This document shows positions 36,731 through 43,083 of a DNA stretch of 49,835 nucleotides, piece by piece. The position numbers and the translations under genes are program-made. The notes below the pieces were generated by a model, which was not told the origin of the DNA, made no database searches, and saw only the letters and a list, made by a program, of their open reading frames with translations. Position 1 is the first letter of the stretch. The number at the start of each line of letters is the position of its first letter. Source of the stretch: Halorubrum sp. Boch-26 (lineage in GTDB: Archaea > Halobacteriota > Halobacteria > Halobacteriales > Haloferacaceae); assembly GCF_029889805.1 (NCBI RefSeq), contig NZ_JARANT010000007.1, positions 1-49,835 of the forward strand, read 5' to 3'.

Positions 36731-36823
36731 AGAGCACTGACTGCCTCGGAAGCGTGTTAAACGTGTGGCTCCCGGCACCGGAAACGCTACGTTGAAGTGG
36801 GCCGGTCGGGCACTTCCGTTTGA

Positions 36824-36894
36824 GCACCGTTGGTCCAGTGGTAGGACATTAGCTTCCCAACCTAATAGCCCGTCGGTTCAATCGGGTACTGGTG
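36824..36894 (+). pseudogene. Degenerate tRNA-Gly copy at the left end (attachment site)
   Basis: The first 49 bases match tRNA-Gly(CCC) except for one change that breaks the last anticodon-stem pair (GC to CC). The T arm then reads TCGGTTCAATCGGG, which does not form a proper five-base stem, and the acceptor end is changed to ACTGGTGC. It is probably not a working tRNA but the remnant left by integration, marking the left boundary of the insert. Confidence 0.75.
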
Positions 36895-36994
36895 CGTTGG
36901 GAGCTAAGACGCGCGGTATATCCACTTTCCTCCGAATTTGGTAGTGAAAATAGGTCAGTAATGTACTGGTCTAACACTAATCCGGCAATCCCCA

Positions 36995-37006
36995 CGCAGT
37001 ACTGCG
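36995..37006. repeat. 12-base palindrome before the integrase gene
   Basis: CGCAGTACTGCG is a perfect palindrome, flanked by GGCAA and TTGCC, about 40 bases before the integrase start. It could be an operator or recombinase arm site. Confidence 0.45.
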
Positions 37007-37043
37007 GTTTGCCAACCCCTCAGGGCTACTACATGAATCAGCC

Positions 37044-38186
37044 ATGTTCGACACGATTGACGACGACGATGTAGAATTGCCTGTCTCACCAGTTGCAGAG
37101 TCAACCGTAGAAGACCTCGAAGAATACCCTCCACTACACCGAGAGAACTACAAGGGGTTCAAAACCGACCTCCTCAAGTGGTTACTCCGGACTGGCAAAG
37201 CTCCAGATAAGGGAGATGGATATGCGATAGAGACGGTTCGGCAGACACACTATCGCATTGAGCACGCATACCGCTGGAAATGGGAGAAAGATGGAATCAC
37301 GACAGATTTCACTCCTGATGATGCCGACGACCTGATCAAACTACTCAACGCACGAACGACAAAGCCCGAGTCAGAGGTAGCAAAGTACCAAAAGGCGATC
37401 AAGCGACTGTTTAAATACTTCAATCGTGCTAAGGGTCGCGATTACGAGTGGGACCCTGGATACCTGAACAGCAAGGGTGGCTCATCAATGAGCCATAGTT
37501 ACTTCAAAAAGTACGAACTCGGTCGATTGTATGAAGCGGCGCTGGAAATATCTGATTTTCGCAGTTATAACAACAAATCACTGACCCCGATTGAGCGGGA
37601 ACGGTTGTCTCATCACCTTGCAGATCGGAACGGGGTGAAAGTTGACGAGATTGGTCCGGAGGATTTCAAAGAAGCCGGTTCTTGGAAGTACCCGTCAATT
37701 ATCGCAGTCTGCTGTGACACGGGACTCCGACCCATTGAGGTCAAGCGGTCGAACACAGAGTGGATCAACCTCCGCGATCAAGAACTCGTGATCCCCTCCA
37801 AGGAATCGAGTAAGGGAGATTCAATGTGGGAAGTCGTGCTGTCAAGTGAGGCAACACGCGCCCTGAGTAACTGGATGGACGAGCGTGATGCCCTGAAAAA
37901 ATACGACGATAGCGATGCGATCTGGCTCACAAAATACGGGAACCCCTACAGTTCTGGTTCTCTGAACAATTTGCTAAACAAACTCATTGAGCGGGCAAAT
38001 ATTGAACCTCGGAATCGCGATCTCACTTGGTATTCGATCCGTCGAGGTGTTGCTACTCTTTGCGCCAACGAAGAGGGTATTCACAATGCGAAGGAACAGC
38101 TACGTCACAAGCAAATTGAGACAACTGAGCGGTATATCCACTCTGGTTCAGAAGAACGAGAGAAATTGGCTGACTCAAAGTGGTAG
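37044..38186 (+). CDS. Tyrosine recombinase/integrase
   Basis: Site-specific recombinase of 380 residues that presumably integrated this element into tRNA-Gly. An N-terminal core-binding (SAM-like) domain (about 28-130) is followed by the catalytic domain. Catalytic residues are Arg229 (DTGLRPIEVKR), Arg333 (WYSIRRGVATL), His355 (QLRHKQI) and Tyr364 (ERYIH). The usual His/Lys before Arg333 is not in its common place (Y-S-I-R rather than H-x-L-R). The gene is unbroken, unlike SSV-type integrases that split on insertion. Low GC and codon use differ from the host. The promoter is not clear. Confidence 0.93.
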   Translation: MFDTIDDDDVELPVSPVAESTVEDLEEYPPLHRENYKGFKTDLLKWLLRTGKAPDKGDGYAIETVRQTHYRIEHAYRWKWEKDGITTDFTPDDADDLIKLLNARTTKPESEVAKYQKAIKRLFKYFNRAKGRDYEWDPGYLNSKGGSSMSHSYFKKYELGRLYEAALEISDFRSYNNKSLTPIERERLSHHLADRNGVKVDEIGPEDFKEAGSWKYPSIIAVCCDTGLRPIEVKRSNTEWINLRDQELVIPSKESSKGDSMWEVVLSSEATRALSNWMDERDALKKYDDSDAIWLTKYGNPYSSGSLNNLLNKLIERANIEPRNRDLTWYSIRRGVATLCANEEGIHNAKEQLRHKQIETTERYIHSGSEEREKLADSKW

Positions 38187-38306
38187 GGTAGAAATAGTAT
38201 GAGAATCTTGATAAAACGGTCATACACCAACTCCGTACCCAATTTAATGATAGTAGACCAGACCCAATAATTACTCTCCCTCGAAAGCGCTCCCCCGAAC
38301 ACCTCA

Positions 38307-38314
38307 ATTTATTA
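38307..38314 (+). promoter_or_regulatory. TATA box of the winged-helix/HEPN operon
   Basis: ATTTATTA lies about 28 bases upstream of the ATG at 38339, so the operon probably has a leaderless transcript independent of the integrase. Confidence 0.55.
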
Positions 38315-38338
38315 CATATTGTGTGCCATTGGCTCAAC

Positions 38339-38827
38339 ATGAGCTATTCAAAGCCTCCATACGACGCTACAGTTGAAAACATTCGTCTGTTATGTGAGGA
38401 GTTACGTGACGCTTCAGGGATGAACAAAGATGATTTAGAAGAACAGACTGACGAACTGGGAGGATCTACATTTGACAGAACTCTTGAAGCCGCTGTTAGG
38501 CTTGGATTGTTTTCGGAACTGGACGGTGAATATCAGGCTACAACCGAGGGGAAGCAGATCGGGTACGGAAGGCTTGCTCCAGAAGAAGAAAAAGAGCTAT
38601 TCCGTGATTTGGTTAGCGGATACGGTTTCTACAGAGAATTGTTGAAAATTGTTGGTGGAGAGTTAACAAGCAACAATGGTGAACAGTACTTGGAGCGCGA
38701 TATTGTCCAGAGTGAAATCGGGATTAACTTTGATTTCGGAGTTGGTGATCGGACTCTAAAATCGGCGGCAGGGACATTCTTACAGATCTTAGATCAGTGT
38801 GGTGTCGGGAACTACACACGGGGTTAA
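38339..38827 (+). CDS. Winged-helix protein, N-terminal part of a split gene
   Basis: A 162-residue protein from ATG 38339. Residues 1-75 (VENIRLLCEELRDASG, TFDRTLEAAVRLGLFSEL, GEYQATTEGKQIGYG) form a winged helix, and 95-162 form a second, similar fold (FYRELLKIVGGELTSNNGEQ, then DRTLKSAAGTFLQILDQCGV). It ends GNYTRG-TAA. The next codons in the same frame read GDYPTRLVINEEYSEFLS, which looks like a direct continuation of the family sequence rather than a new protein. So this looks like the first part of a 283-codon gene broken by TAA at 38825. It resembles DUF5343-like proteins (from memory of the family). It starts the operon ending in the HEPN gene. Confidence 0.8.
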   Translation: MSYSKPPYDATVENIRLLCEELRDASGMNKDDLEEQTDELGGSTFDRTLEAAVRLGLFSELDGEYQATTEGKQIGYGRLAPEEEKELFRDLVSGYGFYRELLKIVGGELTSNNGEQYLERDIVQSEIGINFDFGVGDRTLKSAAGTFLQILDQCGVGNYTRG

Positions 38828-38848
38828 GGTGACTATCCCACCCGTCTT

Positions 38849-39190
38849 GTGATTAATGAAGAATATTCGGAGTTCCTCTCTAGACTGACAACGGAGGAAC
38901 AACCACCGAAAAACGATGGGGTAGCTCAGGAAGAACTACCCATTGATGAAGACGAATCAGATACTGAGGATTCTGTTGAATCCGAACAATCTGAATCTGT
39001 TGAGCCGGATGGCGAATCAGACAACCATCCGCCAGAATCTAGCGAGGGGACAGCAAAAATTGAAATGACAGAGGGAACAGTAGATGGGAATGCGGATTTA
39101 ACAATAGAGATTGAGATCTCTTCAGAAGATTGGGATAGTGAAGAAGTGATCTCGGTAATTGAATCGGTAAAAGGAACGGCTTCAGAATAG
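38849..39190 (+). CDS. C-terminal part of the split winged-helix gene
   Basis: Starts at GTG 38849 in the same frame as the preceding ORF, eight codons after its TAA. The 113 residues comprise a continuation of the winged-helix domain (EEYSEFLSRL), a very acidic linker (DEDESDTEDSVESEQSESVE) and a final segment AKIEMTEGTVDGNADLTIEI with EISSEDWDSEEVISVIESVK, a beta-alpha element often seen at the ends of DUF5343-type proteins. It is probably not an independent gene unless GTG initiation or reading through TAA occurs. The stop TAG is immediately followed by the ATG of the HEPN gene. Confidence 0.6.
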   Translation: MINEEYSEFLSRLTTEEQPPKNDGVAQEELPIDEDESDTEDSVESEQSESVEPDGESDNHPPESSEGTAKIEMTEGTVDGNADLTIEIEISSEDWDSEEVISVIESVKGTASE

Positions 39191-40156
39191 ATGTTTCCCG
39201 CCTACGTAGTTCCACCTGAAGATATTACTGAGGTACTATTTGCCCTTTCAGAACTGGATGATGATGCTGATCAGAGTGCTGTAGCGCAGTTTGTGGACGA
39301 ATCCACTCGGAAAGTACGAGAGTCAATAAGGATACTCCGAGAATTAGATATAATAGTTGGTGATGATACGCTTACATTAGATATTGAATACGACGATCTT
39401 GTTCAGCAATTACCGCCATCTGAGCGTGGCACGATTATTGAGAGGGCACTTCTGAGTTATCAACCATTTATTGATTATGCGACCTATCTCAAGAGAGGAT
39501 ATTCATCTGAGCAGGCAACACAGATGGTATTCGCTGCCAATACTGATCTATCTAGTGATGCCGAGTACGTACAAAGATATTTTCAGAGATTAGGATCTTA
39601 TTCAGGCATACTGACAGAAGACGGAGAGGTGTCCATTGAGGTTCGAGAGATACCTACTGATTCAACTCAGTCGATAGAAAAGCTTAGAGAAGCGTTAGAC
39701 TCCGAATTAGAGGTTCGTATTTATCTTGATGAGATTCTTGGTGAGGAGCTGATGAATTTCTTAGACGAAGATACTAAGTCGGATTTGTCAAGTGGGTACA
39801 TGAAACACTCCACCTCACCGGGTGACGCGATAAGTGCCGTCGGAAGAGCATTTGAGGACTTTCTTAGACATATTGGAGCAGACTTTGGTAACGAAGACCG
39901 CGACTACGGGAGTGCTTCCGGCATCATCCCAGTGGTGAATCATTTACAGGGAGATGATCTAGTAAGAAAAGTCCACAAGCGCCGAGTGTTTTCTTTAGCT
40001 GAGATTAGAAATAAGGGAGGGGCACATGGAGATGACACTGAAGTTCTTGAGCGGTGGGATACCTCCCCAGAAGTTGCTCTCAATACTGCGATCAGCGCTA
40101 CACTCTTGATAAGGAGTATCTACGTGTTCGCATCAGAAGAGAGGTTAGCATTGTGA
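39191..40156 (+). CDS. Winged-helix plus HEPN (Abi-C-like) protein, candidate defence effector
   Basis: A 321-residue protein starting directly after the stop of the preceding gene (TAG ATG). Residues 1-75 form a winged helix (DADQSAVAQFVDESTRKVRE, SIRILRELDIIVGDDTLT) and about 85-155 a second one (IERALLSYQPFIDYATYLKR, TQMVFAANTDLSSDAEYVQR). From about 200 a helical domain ends with EIRNKGGAHGDDTEVLERWD and LLIRSIYVF. RNKGGAH (Arg273-His279) is the R-x5-H pattern of HEPN ribonucleases, as in the abortive infection C-terminal (Abi_C) family. Many HEPN toxins cut RNA in antiviral or toxin-antitoxin systems. Activity and role are inference. Codon use matches the mobile element. Confidence 0.85.
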   Translation: MFPAYVVPPEDITEVLFALSELDDDADQSAVAQFVDESTRKVRESIRILRELDIIVGDDTLTLDIEYDDLVQQLPPSERGTIIERALLSYQPFIDYATYLKRGYSSEQATQMVFAANTDLSSDAEYVQRYFQRLGSYSGILTEDGEVSIEVREIPTDSTQSIEKLREALDSELEVRIYLDEILGEELMNFLDEDTKSDLSSGYMKHSTSPGDAISAVGRAFEDFLRHIGADFGNEDRDYGSASGIIPVVNHLQGDDLVRKVHKRRVFSLAEIRNKGGAHGDDTEVLERWDTSPEVALNTAISATLLIRSIYVFASEERLAL

Positions 40157-40531
40157 CTACAGCTGTCTTCCAATACGTTGAGGAGAAAATTCAGAACTAG
40201 ATTACTGAGATCTCCTGTCACAGTATGGCATAACCAGAGGCTTCCGCTACATTGCTCCTGTTGAAACAAATTCTAAGCCATTCTTTGAGCGGGATACGAT
40301 CAGTTTGCGCTTTTAGAGAATCTCATACACAGACTTTGCTATGTTTGTAGAGTGGATCTCAACAGAGTGATTGTACAGTAGCAATACTTTGAGCGGGCAA
40401 ATGTTGTGTTCCCACGAGATACTGTACTGCCCCTCGAAGTAGCACAATGAATGAGTTTATAACAGAGGATGCGTTTTAGCCAAATGCGAGATCGAACAGA
40501 GGCAACATCCGGAAAATGTTGCTGATTACCA
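40157..40531. other. Non-coding right end of the integrated element
   Basis: 375 AT-rich bases with no convincing gene. The word TTTGAGCGGG recurs at about 40287 and 40391. A hairpin GCAACAT / ATGTTGC (40502-40508 and 40516-40522) lies just before tRNA-Gly, and GTTTATAAC at about 40456-40464 could be a promoter. It could be a decayed gene, a small RNA or recombination arm sites. Confidence 0.5.
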
Positions 40532-40602
40532 GCACCGTTGGTCCAGTGGTAGGACATTAGCTTCCCAAGCTAATAGCCCGGGTTCAATTCCCGGACGGTG
40601 CA
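40532..40602 (+). tRNA. tRNA-Gly (CCC), integration target
   Basis: Acceptor GCACCGT pairs with ACGGTGC, discriminator A, no encoded CCA. Anticodon arm TTAGC / TTCCCAA / GCTAA gives anticodon CCC. T arm CCGGGTTCAATTCCCGG is intact. Length 71. It is the right boundary of the integrated element, so the working gene is at this end. A nearby copy of its 3' end lies at 40653-40666. Confidence 0.95.
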
Positions 40603-40616
40603 CTCACTTCGTCCGT

Positions 40617-40711: not shown

Positions 40712-41566
40712 TTAGACACCGCCCGCGTCATCGACCGTGAGATCGCCCGAAACCGCGTGCTGACTGGTCGTGCTGAGGTCGATTCCGGCGTCGCGACACC
40801 GCTCCGTCACGGTCCGGATGTACGCCGAGCGCGTCACCGAGAACTCCTCCCGATCCGGGTCGGCGATCCAGAAGCGCGCCTGCAGATCGATCGCCGTGTC
40901 CGCGAGGCCGGCGACGCGGACCGACGGAGCCGGATCGTCGATGACCTCCTCGTGGTCGGCGGCCGCGTCCAACAGGATCCGGGTCGTCTCGTCGATGTCG
41001 TCGGCGTAGCCGATACCGAAGGTCGCCGAGATGCGGAGCGTGTCGTTGCTCATGCGGTTCGTCACAGCGTTCGTCGCGAGCTCGGTGTTCGGCACCGTGA
41101 TCGTCTCGTTGTCGAACGTCCGGATACGGGTCACCCGGAACCCGATGTCGTCGATGAAGCCGGCGTTGCCGTTCCACTCGATCCAGTCGTCGATATTGAA
41201 GTTCCGGTCCTGCACGATGAACACGCCGGCGACGAAGTTCGACAGCACGTCTTGGGCCGCGAACCCGACGGCCAGCGTGAGCGCGGCGACGATGAGCGCC
41301 GAGCCGCCGAGGAATCCGGTGAACCCCGCGGCCCACGCCCCCACGACCAGCGCGGCGACGAGGGTGCCGACGCCGAGTAGCTTCTCTATCGTTCGTTCGA
41401 GGGTCGGTTCGAGCGTTCGGCGGGTGACCACCCAACTGACGATCGGGTTGACGACGTACCGGCCGGGGAGGTACAGCGCGCCGGCGACGACGAGGAACTC
41501 GGCGATCTGCCCGAAGAGCCCGACGTACTTCGGAACCAGTTCGGTGGCAACCTGCGACATGGCCAT
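40712..41566 (-). CDS. MscS-family mechanosensitive ion channel
   Basis: Small-conductance mechanosensitive channel for osmotic release, 284 residues from ATG 41566. Membrane segments lie at about 18-40, 65-85 and 90-120; the pore helix is ALTLAVGFAAQDVLSNFVAG with the conserved FVAGVFIVQDRNFNIDDWIE beta-domain start. The rest is the cytosolic beta/alpha cage (TRIRTFDNETITVPNTELAT). Longer frames to 42121 run through a proline- and arginine-rich stretch and are rejected. It is a second MscS-type channel in the window, shorter than that at 10103-11275. It is not part of the mobile element. Confidence 0.92.
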   Translation of the reverse strand: MAMSQVATELVPKYVGLFGQIAEFLVVAGALYLPGRYVVNPIVSWVVTRRTLEPTLERTIEKLLGVGTLVAALVVGAWAAGFTGFLGGSALIVAALTLAVGFAAQDVLSNFVAGVFIVQDRNFNIDDWIEWNGNAGFIDDIGFRVTRIRTFDNETITVPNTELATNAVTNRMSNDTLRISATFGIGYADDIDETTRILLDAAADHEEVIDDPAPSVRVAGLADTAIDLQARFWIADPDREEFSVTRSAYIRTVTERCRDAGIDLSTTSQHAVSGDLTVDDAGGV

Positions 41567-41643
41567 GGCTGACACAGCGGCGGGCGCGGAATGAACCTTG
41601 TCGTGTGAGAGGGGAGACTGCGCGGGGGACGGCGTGAGCTCGG

Positions 41644-43083
41644 CTAGAAGATGTTCGCCTGCCCGTAGACGGAGATGCCGGTGTCGGTGATCTCGTATGG
41701 CTTCGTCTCCCGAGAGTGGTTCGCGTCGCGGATCTTCTGGATCTCGACGGCCAGCCGCGTCTCGCGGAAGTCCGAGCCGCGGACGTACTGGAGCACGAAC
41801 ACCGCGTCGGTGAGGTACTCGACGATACCGTGGCGGGAGGCGTACGGGTTCTCCTCGCTGGCCTCGGAGGTGAGCAGCGTCGTCACGCCCGCCTCCTTCA
41901 GCGATCGGGTGAACCCGAACACCTCCGAGCGCCGCTTCGCCGGGTGGTCGTACATCATCTCCAGGAGCGAGACGGAGTCGAGCACCAGCCGGTCGGCGTC
42001 GAACTCGGCGATGAGCCGGGTGAGGTCGTTCCGGATCGACGCGAGCGAGTTCGCCATCTCGATGGGGTCGATCGCGACCACGGCGAGCCGATCCCCGGCG
42101 GCGGCCTCGCGGAACGCCCACCCCTTCTCCTCGGCGGTCGAGAAGATCGATTCGCGCGTCTGTTCGAGGGTGATGTAGACGCCCTTCCCGTCGGATTCGA
42201 GCGCCTCGTTGAGAAACTGGAGCGCGAACGTCGTCTTCCCGGTCCCCGCCCCGCCGATGACGGAGAGCAGGGAGCGTCGCGGAACCCCGCCGAGGATCAT
42301 GTCGTCGAGCCCCTGTATTCCGACATCGGTGCGCGCTATCGACGACTCGAACTCGTCCGGATCGACATCGAATCCCGTTTCTCCCCGCGGGCCACCGCCG
42401 GGGCCGCCGGGGCCGCCGCCTCCGCCGAACTCGCCGAATCCGGGCTCGTCCGACTGCGCCGAGGCGTTTCCGCGGTACCCGCCGAAGGGGTCGTCGTCGC
42501 CGAACGATCCGCCGTCGAAGGAGTCGCTGGCGCCGGCGCCGCCGAACGGGTCGCCGCCTCCGCCGCTCTCGGCTCCGCCGAACGGATCCGCCGAGCCTTC
42601 GTCCGGAACGGGCGATTCCGGGGCATCGAAGTCCCCGTCGCCGAACTCGGTACCGGAATCGTCGCCGGCCGCCTCATCGGACGAGCCCTCATCACCGGCC
42701 GCTCCGCCGGCAAACGGATCGGCGTCACCGAACGAACCCCCGCCGAAGGGCTCGCTCTCATCGGCGGCGTCGTCCGGTTCGGTCTCGTCCGTCTCGTCGC
42801 GGACGCCGCCGAACGGGGTGTCCTCGTCAACCCCGGGGCGGTCTTCCCCCGTGGTTCCGGCGTCGCTGCCCGCCGCATTCGCGGCGTCGTCGGGATCATC
42901 GACGCCTTCGGTTTCCGTTGCCTCGTCGCCCTCGGCCTCGTCGCCCTCGCCGTCGGTGGTTTCGTCGTCAGTGGTTTCGTCGTCAGTGGTTTCACCGTCG
43001 GTGGTTTCGCCGTCGACCGAGCGATCGGACTCCTCGTCGATGTCGCGCAGCGCGCGCTCGAACCAGTCGTCCTCCTCGCTCAT
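41644..43083 (-). CDS. KaiC-like RecA-family ATPase with a long acidic disordered N-terminus
   Basis: A 479-residue protein. Residues 1-240 are low complexity, acidic and glycine-rich, with repeated ETTDD units and several DPFGG or SFGD words. The RecA/KaiC-type ATPase domain follows: TDVGIQGLDDMILGGVPRRS, Walker A GGAGTGKTT (277-285), EQTRES (306-311), LVLDSVSLLEMMYDHPAKRR (Walker B) and the C-terminal FVLQYVRGSDFRETRLAVEI. The KaiC/GvpD/RAD55-like group acts in signalling, gas vesicle regulation or archaellum control; the specific role here is unknown. The disordered half is unusually long. It is divergent from nadK. Confidence 0.88.
   Translation of the reverse strand: MSEEDDWFERALRDIDEESDRSVDGETTDGETTDDETTDDETTDGEGDEAEGDEATETEGVDDPDDAANAAGSDAGTTGEDRPGVDEDTPFGGVRDETDETEPDDAADESEPFGGGSFGDADPFAGGAAGDEGSSDEAAGDDSGTEFGDGDFDAPESPVPDEGSADPFGGAESGGGGDPFGGAGASDSFDGGSFGDDDPFGGYRGNASAQSDEPGFGEFGGGGGPGGPGGGPRGETGFDVDPDEFESSIARTDVGIQGLDDMILGGVPRRSLLSVIGGAGTGKTTFALQFLNEALESDGKGVYITLEQTRESIFSTAEEKGWAFREAAAGDRLAVVAIDPIEMANSLASIRNDLTRLIAEFDADRLVLDSVSLLEMMYDHPAKRRSEVFGFTRSLKEAGVTTLLTSEASEENPYASRHGIVEYLTDAVFVLQYVRGSDFRETRLAVEIQKIRDANHSRETKPYEITDTGISVYGQANIF
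42956..43015. repeat. Four tandem 15-bp repeats inside the KaiC-like gene
   Basis: Unit GTGGTTTCGTCGTCA at 42956, 42971, 42986 and 43001 (the last two slightly diverged), encoding repeated (D/G)ETTD residues in the disordered N-terminus. Expected to vary in copy number between strains. Confidence 0.85.

What the first reader, a model, noticed from the sequence alone, without database searches (positions are those of the whole stretch)
38825..38848. In-frame TAA splits the winged-helix gene next to the HEPN gene
The 38339 and 38849 ORFs are in the same frame. Reading through TAA (38825-38827) gives TRG-[stop]-GDYPTRLVINEEYSEF, which looks like an uninterrupted domain, and the second ORF has no normal start (GTG inside the domain). 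A nonsense mutation, a sequencing error or recoding are all possible. If the first gene is an antitoxin or regulator, its loss would matter for the HEPN gene.
Basis: partly seen in the sequence, partly recalled or inferred. Interest (0 to 1): 0.6.

Follow-up and report, generated by a model that had tools for sequence, protein, structure and literature searches.

The report
Broken partner gene of HEPN nuclease
In a salt-loving archaeon, a small mobile DNA element carries two genes that normally work as a pair (a DNA-binding protein and a predicted RNA-cutting enzyme), and the first gene is cut short by a stop codon, most likely a recent inactivating mutation that may also shut down the second gene.

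Summary
TAA 38825-38827 interrupts, in frame, one 283-codon gene (ATG 38339 to TAG 39190) that directly abuts the HEPN gene (39191-40156). About 20 haloarchaeal homologues read straight through this column. None ends at TRG, and none starts at INEEY. In the predicted fold the stop falls inside the wing of the second of two tandem winged helices, so it is not a domain boundary.

The gene is best read as a recently disrupted allele. A base error in a draft genome cannot be excluded; recoding is unlikely. The closest relative (Halovenus aranensis) has a sense codon here, but its copy is independently broken by an insertion sequence.

The pair is a conserved two-gene module: a FokI-recognition-domain-like DNA-binding partner plus a winged-helix HEPN protein with an invariant RxxxxxH motif. 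All ten full-length HEPN genes found have such a partner next to them. Here the pair is cargo of a 3.7-kb element in tRNA-Gly(CCC). The stop probably removes the partner's function and, because the genes abut without a gap, probably also stops HEPN translation. Defence is the most likely role of the intact pair; this is inferred. The broken gene is ordinary; the uncatalogued module is mildly novel.

The parts
36823..36872 (+). attL: duplicated 5' part of tRNA-Gly(CCC), left end of the integrated element
   Evidence: 49/50 identity to 40531-40580; relatives have the uninterrupted site
37044..38186 (+). tyrosine recombinase (integrase) of the element
   Evidence: Pfam Phage_integrase E 1.2e-17; near-identical gene at the same tRNA in G291 with other cargo
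38308..38313 (+). TATA-like box (TTTATT) 31 nt before the winged-helix ATG, suggesting a leaderless two-gene transcript
   Evidence: direct sequence; similar box and spacing in three relatives
38339..39190 (+). winged-helix partner gene as one interrupted reading frame (283 codons, stop at codon 163)
   Evidence: read-through translation; homologues continuous across it
38825..38827 (+). in-frame TAA at codon 163, in the predicted wing hairpin of the second winged helix
   Evidence: model m24cf001227d9 strands 157-160 and 169-172
38828..39190 (+). orphaned remainder: last strand and helix of winged helix 2, acidic disordered linker, C-terminal beta-alpha motif
   Evidence: homology, model, C-terminal motif shared with the second partner family
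39191..40156 (+). winged-helix HEPN protein (321 aa), intact; starts directly after the partner's TAG
   Evidence: HEPN fold Z 12.7 to 3o10, 123 residues; 9-member alignment
40007..40027 (+). HEPN RxxxxxH motif (R273, H279), R and H invariant in 9 of 9 homologues
   Evidence: and direct sequence
40532..40603 (+). tRNA-Gly(CCC), intact gene at the right end of the element (attR)
   Evidence: ARAGORN

Best explanation
The TAA is a recent nonsense mutation that inactivates the first gene of a conserved two-gene module carried on a small tRNA-Gly-integrated mobile element. Shown: one ancestral gene, continuous in relatives; a stop inside a folded DNA-binding-type domain (predicted); HEPN frame and motif intact; genes abutting without a gap. 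Inferred: the 162-residue product misfolds or is inactive; HEPN, which has no detectable promoter of its own and starts at the base after the partner's stop, is translated by termination-reinitiation and is therefore made little or not at all. In intact copies the partner, a tandem winged-helix protein shaped like the FokI recognition domain, probably binds DNA and controls or recruits the HEPN protein, which probably cleaves RNA to stop an infected cell. The window copy is then a decaying, probably silent, defence or toxin cassette.
For: About 20 homologues, 235-320 aa as stand-alone proteins, are uninterrupted at this column. The stop lies in a region of pLDDT about 95, between wing strands 157-160 and 169-172. 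The stand-alone second half has no good start. The nearest relative's copy is independently broken by an IS, with inverted repeats TCGGTACTTCCCAA at both contig ends, while its HEPN stays open at 75% identity. A third family member, with no HEPN neighbour, has a 2-nt frameshift. Stop and start lie within about 11 nt in all eight co-directional pairs. In Haloferax volcanii, a premature stop in the upstream gene abolished translation of the downstream gene in 9 of 9 tested overlapping or closely spaced pairs (PMC6728339). TAA ends other genes in the window, such as 40712-42121.
Against: No read data, so a single-base assembly error is possible. The post-stop part has kept its frame and moderate conservation (pN/pS 0.44 overall, 0.27 in the rest of the domain, against 0.14 before the stop), but synonymous sites are near saturation, so this cannot date the loss or prove decay. 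Coupling and HEPN silence are inferred, not measured.
Confidence: 0.75

Rival explanations
1. Sequencing or assembly error: the gene is intact in the organism and the module works.
For: Draft genome of 177 contigs, 95% complete; one stop is the only lesion in an otherwise clean gene; no other genome of this species was found to check against.
Against: Single-base errors in polished contigs are rare (general knowledge); independent disruptions of the same gene family (IS, frameshift) show that real loss happens.
Confidence: 0.15
2. Functional split: the 162-aa N-terminal part and a GTG-38849 product of 113 aa are both made and act together or apart, for example a short repressor plus a free C-terminal motif.
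For: Both parts stay open; the first winged helix is complete, and the C-terminal motif is conserved across two partner families.
Against: No homologue is split this way; the stop cuts a beta hairpin of a confidently predicted domain; no TATA-like box before GTG 38849.
Confidence: 0.06
3. Programmed stop-codon readthrough or recoding keeps the full protein at a low, regulated level.
For: The frame is open and homologous on both sides.
Against: The stop is unique to this copy; TAA is an ordinary terminator in this window; in archaea only Sec and Pyl readthrough is demonstrated (PMC8037382).
Confidence: 0.03
4. About the role of the intact partner (compatible with a nonsense mutation): it is a strict antitoxin, and its loss leaves a HEPN toxin free to act.
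For: Two-gene operon with the partner upstream, the usual antitoxin-first order.
Against: Two lineages lost the partner and kept an open HEPN gene with its motif, which should be lethal unless HEPN is silent; the partner is not an MNT-type antitoxin but a FokI-like tandem winged helix.
Confidence: 0.2

Closest known systems
HEPN superfamily RNase effectors (Abi-type, Csm6, HepT; PMC3710099)
   Same: HEPN four-helix fold (Z 9-12.7 to 3o10, 2hsb, 1ufb, 6m6u, AbiA 8oz7, LsoA 5hy3) and invariant RxxxxxH motif
   Different: No Pfam, NCBIfam or PADLOC model matches; the N-terminal half is a winged-helix module related to the partner gene
HEPN-MNT (type VII) toxin-antitoxin
   Same: Two-gene HEPN module with a small partner gene next to it
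   Different: The partner is a tandem winged helix with an acidic tail, not a nucleotidyltransferase
FokI / N.BspD6I recognition domain and BrxA
   Same: Partner residues 3-190 superpose on FokI (1fok, Z 12.0, 180 residues, 3.5 A) and on N.BspD6I (Z about 10); the HEPN protein's N-terminal part matches N.BspD6I (Z 8.1) and BrxA 7zge (Z 7.2)
   Different: No DNA-cleavage domain and no methyltransferase gene in the element; target specificity unknown; sequence similarity is only marginal (E 0.04)
Small tRNA-integrated elements of archaea with a tyrosine recombinase (PMC8371274)
   Same: Integrase, duplicated tRNA end, swappable cargo, empty sites in relatives
   Different: Very small (about 3.7 kb) with a two-gene cargo

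Membership tests
HEPN superfamily | four-helix HEPN fold | tested here: met
   VIA Z 12.7 over 123 residues to 3o10 and several other HEPN chains in the top ranks
HEPN superfamily | RX4-6H catalytic motif | tested here: met
   R273 and H279 invariant in 9 of 9 aligned homologues; present in the window copy
HEPN superfamily | RNase activity | not testable with these tools
   needs biochemistry
HEPN-MNT type VII toxin-antitoxin | partner is an MNT nucleotidyltransferase | tested here: not met
   the partner's confidently modelled part is tandem winged helix throughout; no MNT family hit in Pfam
FokI-type recognition domain | tandem winged-helix recognition fold | tested here: met
   Z 12.0 over 180 residues
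FokI-type recognition domain | detectable sequence homology | tested here: inconclusive
   profile search top hits 1fok and 2fok at E 0.04
Programmed stop-codon readthrough | stop conserved among homologues | tested here: not met
   only the window copy has a stop at this column
tRNA-integrated element | direct repeat of a tRNA end, integrase, empty site in relatives | tested here: met
   49/50 repeat, integrase, empty site in G391 and others
Known anti-phage defence system | match to a catalogued defence gene model | tested here: not met
   PADLOC scans of both protein families gave no significant match

The most novel reading that the evidence does not exclude
The intact pair is an undescribed two-gene archaeal immune module: a FokI-recognition-like DNA-binding sensor and a HEPN ribonuclease that carries a related winged-helix module, spread by small tRNA-integrated elements, with disruption of the sensor gene switching the whole module off through translational coupling.
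Probability: 0.3. Interest if true: 0.6.

Novelty: new variant of a known kind. Interest (0 to 1): 0.35.

Why it matters
The stop itself is a common kind of event. Its value is that two close lineages independently broke the same partner gene while keeping an open HEPN gene, a natural experiment on whether the partner is an antitoxin, an activator or merely the translational switch for HEPN. The pair is absent from Pfam, NCBIfam and PADLOC and would be a concrete candidate defence or toxin system to test in haloarchaeal lab strains.

Tried and rejected
GTG 38321 as the real start: rejected for ATG 38339 (box position and homologues). A natural boundary at TRG: rejected by about 20 homologues. 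Degenerate-pattern scans of genome and viral contigs with the partner found nothing; with HEPN, two genome hits and no viral hit; alignment A1 was not conserved enough for that tool. Phage records held no HEPN relative; plasmids held few relatives. BLASTP of partner against HEPN protein was negative, but profile comparison links their N-terminal halves (91%, E 9e-7). pN/pS was tried to date the loss; synonymous sites are near saturation, so it is uninformative. L042 looked truncated but has an upstream ATG and is intact. Weak Pfam and PADLOC hits (HVO_A0261_N, Cas6_IIIh, PbeC and others) were not accepted. Foldseek alone gave no HEPN-protein match at E <= 0.001; the HEPN call rests on VIA alignments plus the motif.

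Full report
What was checked. The TAA at 38825-38827 is real in the given sequence. The frame opened by ATG 38339 continues in phase through it to TAG 39188-39190, giving 283 codons with one stop at codon 163. The HEPN ATG is the next base, 39191. The search inside the own genome found only this copy.

Homologues. A search of 391 genomes of the class found relatives in 23 other genomes. Those read as full genes are open across the column of the stop, with the conserved pattern AGxGxY..G...TRL..(D/E) flanking it. The residue under the stop varies (mostly R, also Q, K and S), so the position is not itself invariant, but the surrounding wing is. Three copies are broken, each differently: the window (stop), Halovenus aranensis (G301; IS with inverted repeats TCGGTACTTCCCAA and TTGGGAAGTACCGA at two contig ends), and a copy on a plasmid of Haloarcula sp. 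SYNS111 (G332; 2-nt deletion against a close relative). The last has no HEPN neighbour in the stretch examined.

Structure. The read-through partner (mean pLDDT 78, folded part about 95) is two tandem winged helices (residues 1-79 and 81-187), a disordered acidic linker (188-254) and a C-terminal beta-alpha motif. The stop cuts the second wing between strands 157-160 and 169-172. Aligned by VIA, residues 3-190 match the FokI recognition domain (Z 12.0, 180 residues, 3.5 A) and N.BspD6I nickase (Z about 10, 165-170 residues); the remaining top rows are mostly single MarR-like winged helices over about 65-70 residues. A profile search of PDB sequences also puts FokI first, but only at E 0.04.

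The HEPN protein. The model (mean pLDDT 85) has a C-terminal HEPN domain (Z 12.7 to 3o10, 12.1 to 2hsb) with R273 and H279 invariant in 9 of 9 homologues. Its N-terminal half is winged-helix and related to the partner's N-terminal half by profile comparison (91%, E 9e-7), with structural matches to N.BspD6I (Z 8.1) and BrxA (Z 7.2). BrxA is itself described as homologous to the FokI DNA-binding domain (PMC12839542).

The module. Ten full-length HEPN relatives were found (window included), and every one has a winged-helix partner gene directly beside it: eight co-directional with about 11 nt or less between stop and start (window, G301, G336, G352, G063, G326, G002, G724) and two in other orientations (G066, G355). 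The partners of G063, G326 and G002 belong to a second, related family (profile 97%). G724 lies outside the window's order and still has the pair; its partner was identified by eye, since the profile search of G724 with A2 gave no hit. The pair is rare and patchy: 10 of 391 genomes matched, counting one C-terminal remnant.

The carrier. Window 36823-36872 repeats the 5' part of tRNA-Gly(CCC) at 40531-40580 (49/50). The GC content falls from 0.65-0.76 in the flanks to 0.42-0.52 inside. Relatives of the same genus show the joined, empty site (G391 and others), and G291 carries nearly the same integrase at the same tRNA with different cargo. In G352 the pair sits with an integrase between two tRNA-Ser genes. 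So the pair is swappable cargo of small tRNA-integrated elements.

How it most likely works. Intact: a leaderless transcript begins at the partner's ATG (TTTATT box at -31, similar in relatives). Ribosomes finish the partner and restart at the HEPN ATG. The partner probably binds DNA and controls or recruits the HEPN protein, whose predicted RNase activity would arrest the cell. Broken: ribosomes stop at codon 163, 363 nt before the HEPN start. In Haloferax volcanii such early stops abolished downstream translation in 9 of 9 overlapping or closely spaced pairs (PMC6728339). The pattern scan found no box before the HEPN start. The module is therefore probably silent. This also explains how two lineages can lose the partner and keep an open HEPN gene without harm.

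Rivals. A base error cannot be excluded without reads. Recoding has no support beyond the open frame: the stop is unique to this copy, TAA ends other genes in the window, and only Sec and Pyl readthrough is demonstrated in archaea (PMC8037382). A functional split is disfavoured because the stop cuts a folded hairpin. A strict antitoxin role is possible but not needed.

Novelty. The nonsense mutation is ordinary. The pair has no model in Pfam, NCBIfam or PADLOC, and the paper searches made here did not turn up a description of it; only openly licensed papers were searched. It is best filed as a new variant of HEPN two-gene systems.

Noticed in passing
window 36823-40603: The whole 3.7-kb unit is an integrated element in tRNA-Gly(CCC); genome G291 has the same integrase at the same tRNA with two small predicted membrane-protein genes instead of the winged-helix/HEPN pair.
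   Followed up: yes
L014:247-2208, L015:1-2778, L020:937-3702: The same tandem winged-helix module is fused in front of OLD-like AAA ATPases (AAA_15; in L015 and L020 also an OLD-type TOPRIM match), another defence-type architecture.
   Followed up: partly
L043:2977-4869 and L060:3743-5680: In two distant genomes an SF2-helicase-like gene with an N-terminal HTH-like region lies directly upstream of the HEPN gene or pair, suggesting a larger three-gene version; assigned by eye only.
   Followed up: no
L029/L030 (Halovenus aranensis contig ends): The closest relative's partner gene is interrupted by an IS element with 14-bp inverted repeats and an apparent 3-bp target duplication (CAG).
   Followed up: yes
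L063:6671-6820: Genome G274 keeps only the last 50 residues of a HEPN relative (86% identical) near a tRNA-Thr and a TnpB-like gene, a remnant of a lost copy.
   Followed up: no
L047:6844-7783: A solo partner-type gene on a Haloarcula sp. SYNS111 plasmid is frameshifted by a 2-nt deletion relative to close homologues.
   Followed up: yes
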